Origin: Bolinopsis microptera
Lineage: Eukaryota; Ctenophora; Tentaculata; Lobata; Bolinopsidae
Length of the DNA: 64,000 nucleotides
Direction of reading: 5' to 3'
Assembly: GCF_026151205.1 (NCBI RefSeq)
Contig: NC_087080.1
Span: 16,839,337-16,903,336, forward strand
The stretch's first letter is position 1, and each line of letters begins with the position of its first letter. A program made the position numbers and the translations under genes. Under the pieces are notes generated by a model. It saw only the letters and a list, made by a program, of their open reading frames with translations. It searched no databases and was not told the origin of the DNA. Of the stretch, positions 33,234-36,200 are shown piece after piece.

Positions 33234-36200
33234 GTAAATTTAAACTCTAGTACAAATTCTTTATCATATATTTATCTACATCATGGCTTTAAAATTAGAC
33301 ATTCTGCACTCTTGAACTATCTTTGAAATTGAAAAAAGTTTCACAAAACACTGAAAGATTATTCAATAAACAATATACATCCTTGCAGAAAAAGAAGCAA
33401 TTACCAAGCTTCAAGATGATATCAAGGGGCCTACAAATAAAGTGAACAAATCTGCTTGGGTTATCAACCATAAGTGGCGTTCTCTTAGAACAAAGAAGGC
33501 AAATCCAAAGTAAGCAATGTGCTCAGCTGTGAAATAAGTTAATATATAGTACTATGTCGTAGTCTCATTACTGGTTGAACAAGTAGAGAACTCGAACATT
33601 GGATAAACTTACAGTGTGTCATTACAACTACTTATTCCCTCGCCTATGATATGAGCGTTAATGTTAACCAAGTACATATTATGGTAGCCGATTTATCAGG
33701 GTACTAATTGTTACATTCTCTGAAAACTGCCGGCCTCAGTAATTCAGACTGAAGAAAAAGTTTTGTATAAAAGATATACGTATAATTTTGAAAGACTATT
33801 TACAAAAGTTAAGAGTTTTAGCTCTTCATCCACAGTGTGTGTAACTAATATATAGTCAATAAATGTTTAACACGATTATAGAAATAAATCTTACGGTCAC
33901 GTTAAGGAATTTTATCAAAATTTTATTTATTGCATATTTCAAAAGTAATTTGTACTACTCATTTAGCATTGCTTTTACCAAATTTTAGCAGGTATATAAA
34001 ATTTCAAGTATAGGAATATGTTCTTACAGAGGTAGGAAAAAATTAGGTATGTCGTTTTCCAAAATAGGACCTACAGTGCTTCTGAAAGCCAGAATCAGCT
34101 GTCCTCAAAGTTTTTGCAATCACCAAATGAGATGACAATATGGTTAGGTATCAATATTTGGAAGTTTTTTTCCTCGGTACAGGCCTAATTTATAGCTACA
34201 ATACATTATAATAACAATTATTTGGATCCGTGTATGGTGATTATTATTTTTAATGGTACAAATGATAAAAAAATTTAATCGAAATGTTCTATTGCACTGT
34301 GAACTATTTACGTACATGCCTAAATGTTAACTAGTAATAGACATGTTTATCAGTAACCAGTGTACAAGGGTTATGGGGCATTTTCTAATATTAGATTCCC
34401 AAAAGTGTCAACTTTCATCAAGCACCACAAAACTTGAAAAAACATCATATCATGGAAATTTTTGAGTCAAATTCTTTTAAAATCACACAGGCTGAAGATG
34501 ACATCTCAGATCTGAAATATCTTGAAAAGTTAAATTTTGCACAACCTGAAGTATCAAAAAATTAATCTTCAGGAAGACAAACAAGTTCAAGTAATAAGGG
34601 GCACCAATATAGTCATTTTTTTCAAAATATTTTTTTTGTACATCTTCAACCCAGCAATTTCGATCATTTTGTGTTAGGAACTTGCCTAGACTGTCTACTA
34701 TAACATGGTGGAGGTTTCATCTAAATCGGAATTTCAGACGAGGTTAAAACCCATGGTTTATATCAGGCAGTCGGAAAATTGCCAAAAAATGACAAAATTA
34801 TGTGCTTTACCCTATCTATTTATTTTGATAATTATTTGTAAACATATAATCTCAGGGAACTGTGCGATGTTGACAAGTATAGTCAATCACTTGATAAGTC
34901 TCGTTTTTACGATGCTCGAGATAAGATTGGTGCAGAGAGTGAAAAATATGCTGCATTCTTAAAATACCTACGAGATAAGTCAAGTTTGGTAGCTGTTATA
35001 TTTCTGACAGAAGGAACAAAAAGACGTCAGCCAGAAGTAATAACTTTGAGTTAAAAAATGCTTGGTATTTTAATATCTCAATTATCATGATCATTATTTC
35101 TGAAAATGTGTCCAGCAGGAAGGTTTTGATATTCTGTTGGTATTTAATTAAGATGCACAATGCCTTTGTTTTAAATACCAATATCTATTGCAGGAGCTTT
35201 CAGAACTTATTCATTCCCTGTTTTCTGCTTTATTTGGCTTTGCTATCCTGCCTGACGACGAGAAAAGGATTGTAAGAGTGATTGGAGATATTGCCAAGAT
35301 ACTCATTGCTGAATATCAGGGAGCTATATCTTCTTTCTTTCATCATCAGACAGCACTGTCATTATCATTCAGGTAAGTTGAATCCGTTAGATTTATGGTT
35401 GCTCTTCCTAATAGCTTGTCTCAGGATTGTTGTGTGATTTCTCTTAATATTACGTGGTTACAGATAATGGTATGTTTTTAAGTACACATTTTTGGTAAAT
35501 GCTGACTGGATTATTTCAAGGTTGTACATAGAGTGGAGCTCCAATACACGAGTGTACATGGGCGAACTAATGAGTGATATTGTGATGAATGTTATGGCAG
35601 AACCAGAGTTTCTTATTGTTGATGTTAGCAACTATTTATATTTTACTATGAGGATAGTTATTAGGTATGCTTCTAAAATCATTACTTTTGTTAAGCAGTT
35701 GTTGGAAGCAAAACTTTAGCCCAAAGTCGTCTCATAATATTATCATATTTCCAGGAGACCAAATATCTAGAACGACATCCTAATGCTATAAACTCCAGAG
35801 CTAAGGTAAGATATCATCCTAATACTATAAACTCCAGAGCTAAGGTAAGATGTCATCCTAATACTATAAACTCCAGAGCTAAAGTAAGATATCATCATAA
35901 TGCTAGTATAAACTCCAGAGCTAAGGTAAGATGTCATCCTAATGCTATAAACTCCAGAGCTAAGGTAAGATGTCATTCTGAGATACCAATACTAAATCAT
36001 CATGTTTAAGTGTACCAATATCCCCCCCTCTGTAACCAGTAACTTCAGGTAGATTATTACCGGAAGAGAATAGCAACTCATGTGATAAGCATGATTACAC
36101 AGATAAGGAGACACTTGCACTCCTTCCCCCCTTATCTACGCTGGCTGGGCGTCTCCATCGTTCAGTACTTCCAGATCTACCGCGGAGCTACTCAAGATGA

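What the first reader, a model, noticed from the sequence alone, without database searches (positions are those of the whole stretch)
35755..35969. Five in-frame tandem splice donors made by duplicating an exon end
The last part of GAPVD1 exon 6 and its GT donor are repeated four more times in the intron. Donor spacings of 39, 39, 42 and 39 bp are all multiples of three, and the exon reading frame is open across every copy. Any of five donors would therefore join exon 7 in phase 0, adding 0, 13, 26, 40 or 53 residues (VRYHPNTINSRAK-type repeats) to the RasGAP domain. Frame preservation in four of four copies, including the copy whose 3-bp insertion adds a codon, suggests either selection or a founder unit that was a multiple of three by chance. 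It is a possible length-variable protein module generated by a splice-site minisatellite.
Basis: seen in the sequence. Interest (0 to 1): 0.88.

Follow-up and report, generated by a model that had tools for sequence, protein, structure and literature searches.

The report
Minisatellite copying an exon's splice donor
In a comb-jelly genome a short tandem repeat has copied the end of one gene's exon, with its splicing signal, four more times; similar repeats sit at other exon ends there, mostly with units that break the reading frame, so the neat in-frame spacing here is probably luck.

Summary
A 39-bp minisatellite (35776-35976) repeats the last ~30 nt of a GAPVD1-like exon with its GTAAGA donor: five donors, spaced 39, 39, 42, 39; all five splice choices stay open. 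A frame-selected protein module is not supported. The genome is a ctenophore's (probably Bolinopsis microptera). Four searches for repeated donor words listed 29 arrays; 15 begin at the end of an open, exon-like stretch, five with protein-family support (homeobox, NOG2/GNL2, aspartic protease, WD40, sushi). Of these 15 plus GAPVD1, units are multiples of three in 3 of 16 and readable through in 2 of 16; about a third of possible duplications across this donor would be in frame. Differences between copies look neutral. In the homeobox gene only the first donor restores the homeodomain. Exon-boundary minisatellites are known: 'mirages' in lancelets, reported not to disturb splicing, and human cases where repeats can be spliced out or kept. 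Most likely the first donor is used and the array leaves as intron; use of later donors is possible and untested (no RNA). Post-hoc lead: donors resemble the exon one unit upstream (39 of 84 bases, 21.9 expected), suggesting microhomology-seeded duplication.

The parts
35755..35805 (+). GAPVD1-like exon ('exon 6'), 51 nt, phase 0; ends AAG|GTAAGA (first, most likely authentic donor)
   Evidence: acceptor atatttccag upstream, open frame with neighbours
35776..35976 (+). 39-bp minisatellite, 5.1 copies, spanning the exon end and its donor ('mirage'-type array)
   Evidence: TRF and repeat finder
35806..35844 (+). copy 2, VRYHPNTINSRAK if read through; second donor follows 35844
35845..35883 (+). 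copy 3, VRCHPNTINSRAK; donor context AAA|GTAAGA
35884..35925 (+). copy 4, 42 bp with an extra AGT codon at 35905-35907; fourth donor follows 35925
35926..35964 (+). copy 5, VRCHPNAINSRAK; fifth donor follows 35964, then a partial copy and unique intron
36049..36201 (+). next exon ('exon 7'), starts VDYYRKR; RasGAP match begins near here
   Evidence: acceptor gtaacttcag; RasGAP profile match
34856..35036 (+). upstream exon of the same gene model
35194..35372 (+). upstream exon of the same gene model
35521..35623 (+). upstream exon of the same gene model (weak donor GTTAGC, chosen because it keeps phase)
36392..36481 (+). downstream exon, later part of the RasGAP match

Best explanation
It is a mirage-type minisatellite: a tandem duplication with one end just inside the intron and the other about 30 nt back in the exon copied the exon end with its donor, and slippage or unequal exchange then raised the copy number. 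Because the first copy keeps an intact donor next to the unchanged exon, splicing from the first donor removes the whole array as intron, so the change is close to neutral. The 39-bp unit and the 3-bp insertion keep the frame by chance. Shown: the array, its position at the exon end, the recurrence at other exon ends, and loss of frame in most of those. Inferred: use of the first donor in GAPVD1, and neutrality.
For: Array at the exon end. 15 of the 29 arrays listed by four donor-pattern searches begin at the end of an open, exon-like stretch. Family support for 5 of the 15: homeodomain E 3e-13, aspartic protease 9e-5, MABP1/WDR62-type WD40 8e-5; NOG2/GNL2 1.2e-11; sushi 0.004, below its cut-off. 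Units: 39, 54, 38, 46, 34, 34, 38, 23, 40, 45, 20, 41, 29, 32, 35 and 44; 3 of 16 multiples of three, 2 of 16 open (two are paralogs, so 15 independent). Homeobox: the first donor joins ...AQIQVQ to VWFQNRRAKCKKTGV*, the second shifts the frame, and reading into the third copy meets TAA (sequence). Chance of frame at this donor 32%; 18 of 58 sampled minisatellites have units that are multiples of three. Lancelet precedents.
Against: No transcript was available, so the donor used in GAPVD1 is not observed. Duplicated donors of equal strength often compete, sometimes favouring the one nearer the acceptor (recalled). In human duplicated genes 66% of boundary repeats that form introns also have a transcript keeping the repeat (PMC2812944, passages). 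The lancelet authors also note that repeat copies could act as cryptic sites. The RasGAP profile scores higher with inserted copies (17.1, 21.0, 23.6 bits for 0, 1, 4 copies); ten shuffled inserts do as well (19.9-24.1 for 13 residues, 20.9-26.9 for 53), so the gain comes from length, but it means the zero-copy protein is short here against the profile and an insert could be tolerated. 9 of the 15 other exons have no family match and one a weak one, so some may not be exons.
Confidence: 0.77

Rival explanations
1. Working tandem donors: the spliceosome uses several of the five sites, making RasGAP variants with 0-53 extra residues; frame is kept by selection.
For: All five donors are near-identical GTAAGA sites and every choice stays in frame; the insertion point tolerates extra length in the profile; human boundary minisatellites often have both spliced and retained forms.
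Against: Frame is expected by chance in about a third of cases; 14 of 16 exon-end arrays are out of frame or hit stops; differences between copies show no protein constraint; lancelet precedents splice normally.
Confidence: 0.11
2. The whole array is exonic: the last donor (35964) is the authentic one and the protein carries a fixed 53-residue repeat.
For: The last donor is intact and nearest the acceptor; among the three real versions scored, the RasGAP score is highest with four copies.
Against: Shuffled inserts score as well; in the homeobox gene only the first donor works; non-synonymous differences between copies are as frequent as without constraint.
Confidence: 0.05
3. Stepwise removal (compatible with the best explanation): every unit runs from GT to AG, so downstream-donor products can be trimmed again by splicing from the first donor to the AG that ends a copy, as at recursive splice sites; arrays with dozens of perfect donors are tolerated for this reason.
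For: By construction each unit starts GT and ends AG; one listed array has a unit that looks like a whole mini-intron with a pyrimidine tract and CAG (C8:7268823, 37 bp), though no exon was recognised beside it. Recursive splicing uses juxtaposed acceptor and donor (PMC8605326, abstract and outline only).
Against: Units of 20-54 nt are short for animal introns, so several copies would have to go together; the AAG ends in GAPVD1 are weak acceptors (recalled); no RNA.
Confidence: 0.1
4. Assembly artefact.
For: Tandem repeats can be mis-assembled; copy number may be wrong.
Against: Copies differ by private changes, and the same arrangement recurs at 15 other places on several contigs.
Confidence: 0.02

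Closest known systems
'Mirage' minisatellites of lancelets (Adh, globins BflGb6 and BflGb9, troponin C, PGBD5)
   Same: Tandem repeats of about 10-160 bp that span an exon/intron boundary and duplicate splice sites; BflGb6 copy number differs between haplotypes; reported not to disturb regular splicing (passages of PMC3087553, and PMC3902484; the original Adh paper is not held).
   Different: Here a ctenophore; some arrays are long (44 donors at the sushi exon; several dozen listed donor triplets at C3:5.82 Mb); normal splicing is inferred, not shown; allelic variation not seen.
Minisatellites at exon-intron boundaries of human genes in segmental duplications (PMC2812944, passages only)
   Same: Units averaging 30 bp in about four copies at exon-intron boundaries; 27 'intron modifications' reported; such repeats can be spliced out as new introns or kept, with RNA support.
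   Different: There the repeats are described as lying in exons and forming new introns through cryptic sites; here an existing intron's donor is copied, and no RNA is at hand.
Intron gain by tandem duplication of an AGGT site (Rogers model)
   Same: Duplicating a segment across AG|GT makes a GT...AG stretch that can be spliced out (search listing of PMC4974935 and PMC3443670; cited in PMC3087553).
   Different: Here an existing intron is extended at its 5' end; no new intron is claimed.
Tandem alternative donors
   Same: Several in-frame 5' splice sites close together.
   Different: Familiar cases lie a few nt apart and arise by point mutation (recalled); here they are minisatellite copies 39-42 nt apart, with no evidence of use.

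Membership tests
Mirage minisatellite | Tandem repeat whose unit spans an exon/intron boundary | tested here: met
   About 30 nt exon plus 9 nt intron per unit; the boundary rests on the gene model
Mirage minisatellite | Copies carry the splice signal | tested here: met
   Five GTAAGA donors
Mirage minisatellite | Found at several genes of the genome | tested here: met
   15 of 29 listed donor arrays start at exon-like ends, 5 of the 15 with protein-family support
Mirage minisatellite | Regular splicing is not disturbed | not testable with these tools
   No RNA data; first-donor use only inferred, with a homeobox example
Mirage minisatellite | Copy number varies between alleles or tissues | not testable with these tools
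   One copy of the locus held; 1 match
Selected length-variable protein module | Frame kept more often than chance | tested here: not met
   3 of 16 exon-end arrays multiples of three, 2 of 16 open; chance 32% at this donor
Selected length-variable protein module | Purifying selection on repeat residues | tested here: inconclusive
   Three non-synonymous kinds of difference to one synonymous in the repeated part, as without constraint, but very few changes

The most novel reading that the evidence does not exclude
In this ctenophore lineage splice donors themselves seed minisatellites: a donor hexamer pairs with a donor-like hexamer 20-55 nt back in the exon, duplicates the exon end, and the array then grows to dozens of perfect donors, tolerated because each GT...AG unit can also be removed stepwise. 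Support: donors match the exon exactly one unit upstream at 39 of 84 positions against 21.9 expected (0 of 20,000 resamplings as high; a test chosen after seeing the data, 14 arrays). Five arrays match at 4-6 of 6 (C1:17.6 Mb 6, insulin-like 5, WD40 5, homeobox 5, C3:12.05 Mb 4); five match at only 0-1 (sushi, aspartic protease, F5/8-like, C4:3.73 Mb, Ig-like); GAPVD1 at 3.
Probability: 0.2. Interest if true: 0.65.

Novelty: new member of a known kind. Interest (0 to 1): 0.4.

Why it matters
Minisatellites that copy exon/intron boundaries are in print for lancelets and for human duplicated genes; the searches made here showed none from a ctenophore, though most listed papers were not opened. 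Finding them at up to 16 exon ends of one ctenophore genome suggests the process is common in repeat-rich genomes. It offers natural arrays of up to dozens of near-identical donors for asking how the spliceosome picks one, and a ready substrate for intron growth or gain. It also warns that in-frame spacing at a single locus is weak evidence for function.

Tried and rejected
Enrichment by raw counts was rejected as a test. AAGGTAAG triplets gave 913+689 matches against 9+2 for the reversed word, CAGGTGAGT 128+193 against 6+5, AAGGTGAGT 112+69 against 36+0, CAGGTAAGT 154+296 against 0+0. But a word with the same dinucleotides, AAGTAAGG, gave 667+445 (its own reversed word 2+41). Counts are dominated by a few long arrays, and AAGTAAGG still contains GTAAGG, so neither result is clean. 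I do not claim that exon ends are hit more often than other places: with about one minisatellite per 2.8 kb (58 in 164 kb, the window included) many exon ends would be hit by chance, and searching for donor words favours real donors.

A random genome sample was too small for donor statistics (10 stretches of 10 kb plus the window; 1 of 58 minisatellites with an AGGTRAG word, GAPVD1 itself). Profile scores as evidence for exonic copies were rejected after the shuffle control. The first-donor RasGAP protein had no relative in the PDB at E up to 1; nor had the DPH2-like exon. The names DPH2-like, insulin-like and Ig-like are recalled (no Pfam match); the F5/8 match is weak (E 0.13). No next exon was recognised by eye in the DNA fetched downstream of the aspartic protease, DPH2-like, Ig-like and WD40 arrays.

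How 'exon-like' was judged: an open frame running into the first donor, then by eye. A lax rule afterwards found an acceptor-like AG in 14 of the 15 open stretches and an in-frame ATG in the homeobox one; that rule has no control. Family searches covered all 15: five supported, one weak, nine without a match. 14 of the 29 listed arrays are not exon-end, unclear or in a dispersed element: C1:12.06, C1:23.0, C2:0.748, C2:1.636, C2:20.8, C1:2.0, C1:21.7, C1:25.9, C2:19.85, C6:4.39, C6:20.29, C8:7.27, C8:17.9, C10:17.04 Mb. The listings show only the first hundred or so places, so these 29 are not a random set. The array at C1:4.18 Mb was classified after the test and is not in it; one of the two insulin-like paralogs was also left out there. 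Acceptor-like arrays were only listed.

For that reason the best explanation went from 0.82 to 0.77 and the working-donor rival from 0.08 to 0.11.

Full report
What is there. The window lies on a 17.4-Mb contig of a 264.65-Mb genome in 232 contigs. The genome holds 55 photoprotein matches without stops inside, many in tandem clusters; one translated copy matches berovin and mnemiopsin, two ctenophore photoproteins (source recalled), at E 1e-123 and 5e-121. The phylum is firm, the species only likely.

The array. TRF and the repeat finder place five copies of a 39-bp unit at 35776-35976. The unit is about 30 nt of exon end plus GTAAGATRT. Five exon ends, 35805, 35844, 35883, 35925 and 35964, are followed by GTAAGA, and all five joins to the exon at 36049 are open. 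The gene model gives a RasGAP match of 17.1 bits, or 25.4 bits (E 1.6e-5) with two further putative exon peptides appended by hand; both are below the curated cut-off of 28.3. A VPS9 exon lies about 43 kb downstream on the same strand, which fits GAPVD1 (domain layout recalled).

Is frame preservation surprising? No. Copies of one tandem repeat share one unit length, so there is one chance of a multiple of three plus one in-frame 3-bp change. Over all conceivable duplications across this donor (10-51 exonic and 6-59 intronic nt, units 20-70 nt) 467 of 1438 read through in frame. In the sampled sequence 18 of 58 minisatellites have units divisible by three. Within the repeated part the copies differ by TAT/TGT, GCT/ACT, CCT/CAT (non-synonymous) and AAG/AAA (synonymous), as expected without constraint.

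The same thing elsewhere. Four genome-wide searches for three nearby copies of a donor word listed 29 distinct arrays (the listings are capped), whose flanks I fetched. Fifteen start at the end of an open, exon-like stretch: a sushi exon (C1:428576), NOG2/GNL2, an unnamed one at C3:5.82 Mb, two insulin-like paralogs, a DPH2-like one, others at C1:17.6, C3:12.05, C4:3.73 and C1:4.18 Mb, an aspartic protease, an F5/8-like one, a WD40 protein, an Ig-like one and a homeobox gene. Five have family support (homeobox, aspartic protease, WD40, NOG2/GNL2, sushi), one a weak match (F5/8, E 0.13) and nine none; the names insulin-like, DPH2-like and Ig-like are recalled. With GAPVD1 that is 16 arrays, units 20-54 bp; 3 of 16 are multiples of three (GAPVD1, sushi, aspartic protease) and 2 of 16 read through (GAPVD1, aspartic protease). 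The sushi array has 44 donors with spacings of 54, 55, 56, 58 and 59, and its second copy reads into a stop.

Which donor is used? In the homeobox gene the exon after the array reads VWFQNRRAKCKKTGV*. The first donor completes the homeodomain and the second shifts the frame; reading into the third copy meets TAA (sequence). In the aspartic protease the exon ends at profile position 105 of 315, so copies would interrupt the domain although they are in frame. For GAPVD1 the test is weaker: the RasGAP score rises with copies (17.1, 21.0, 23.6 bits), but ten shuffled inserts raise it as much (19.9-26.9 bits), so the gain reflects length.

What it is. Tandem repeats across exon/intron boundaries have been called mirages in lancelets (Adh, globins, troponin C, PGBD5). 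The papers report copy-number differences (BflGb6) and that the repeats do not disturb regular splicing, while noting that copies could serve as cryptic sites (passages of PMC3087553, and PMC3902484). In human segmental duplications minisatellites at exon-intron boundaries are also reported, averaging 30-bp units in four copies; they can be spliced out as new introns, and 66% of these cases also have a transcript that keeps the repeat (passages of PMC2812944). The GAPVD1 array meets the structural definition of a mirage; normal splicing and polymorphism could not be tested, and the human cases keep alternative use open. My searches showed no report from ctenophores (most listed papers not opened).

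A lead. The donor hexamer resembles the exon exactly one unit upstream: 39 of 84 positions match against 21.9 expected from other offsets, reached in 0 of 20,000 resamplings, in 14 arrays. I chose the test after noticing the pattern; five arrays match at 4-6 of 6 but five at 0-1, and GAPVD1 at 3. If confirmed on an unselected set, it would mean that donors and donor-like exon sequences pair to start the duplication.

Noticed in passing
window 4569-16213: 11.6-kb minisatellite of a 15-bp unit CAACTGCTCCAGAGT (about 795 copies), whose unit reads TAPES in one frame; length and frame suggest checking for a giant repeat protein.
   Followed up: no
window 51993-61668: 9.7-kb minisatellite of a 14-bp unit TAATGTAGCTGATG, about 691 copies.
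   Followed up: no
window 36785-37756: 29-bp minisatellite, 33 copies, with a higher-order period, inside what looks like a downstream intron of the same gene.
   Followed up: no
window 18081-18198: Degenerate 39-bp repeat of an acceptor-like TTACAG/GTGAACTGGACATATTATTACAG unit (TRF 18124-18198; sequence); possibly an acceptor-side array.
   Followed up: partly
window 41961-42360: 80-bp unit, five copies, each holding TTTGTTTTATAG|GTACAG, a juxtaposed acceptor/donor-like site.
   Followed up: partly
own genome, e.g. C5:12422503, C2:22747818, C10:9224796: Tandem arrays of acceptor-like TTTGCAGG words, 51+102 matches against 1+12 for the reversed word; exon starts not checked.
   Followed up: no
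L051 and L057 (C1:1998056 and C2:19851452): The same 28-bp donor-bearing minisatellite in two similar flanks on different contigs: a dispersed element.
   Followed up: no
own genome C1:21999412-22006929, C5:17012730-17026401, C13:11082451-11094340, C3:3415490-3427363: 55 photoprotein matches without stops inside, many in tandem clusters with about 1-kb spacing.
   Followed up: partly
C9:1817933 and C9:1884960 (L049, L050): Insulin-like (recalled name) paralogs 67 kb apart that share the same 34-bp exon-end array, so the array is older than the gene duplication or was copied with it.
   Followed up: partly
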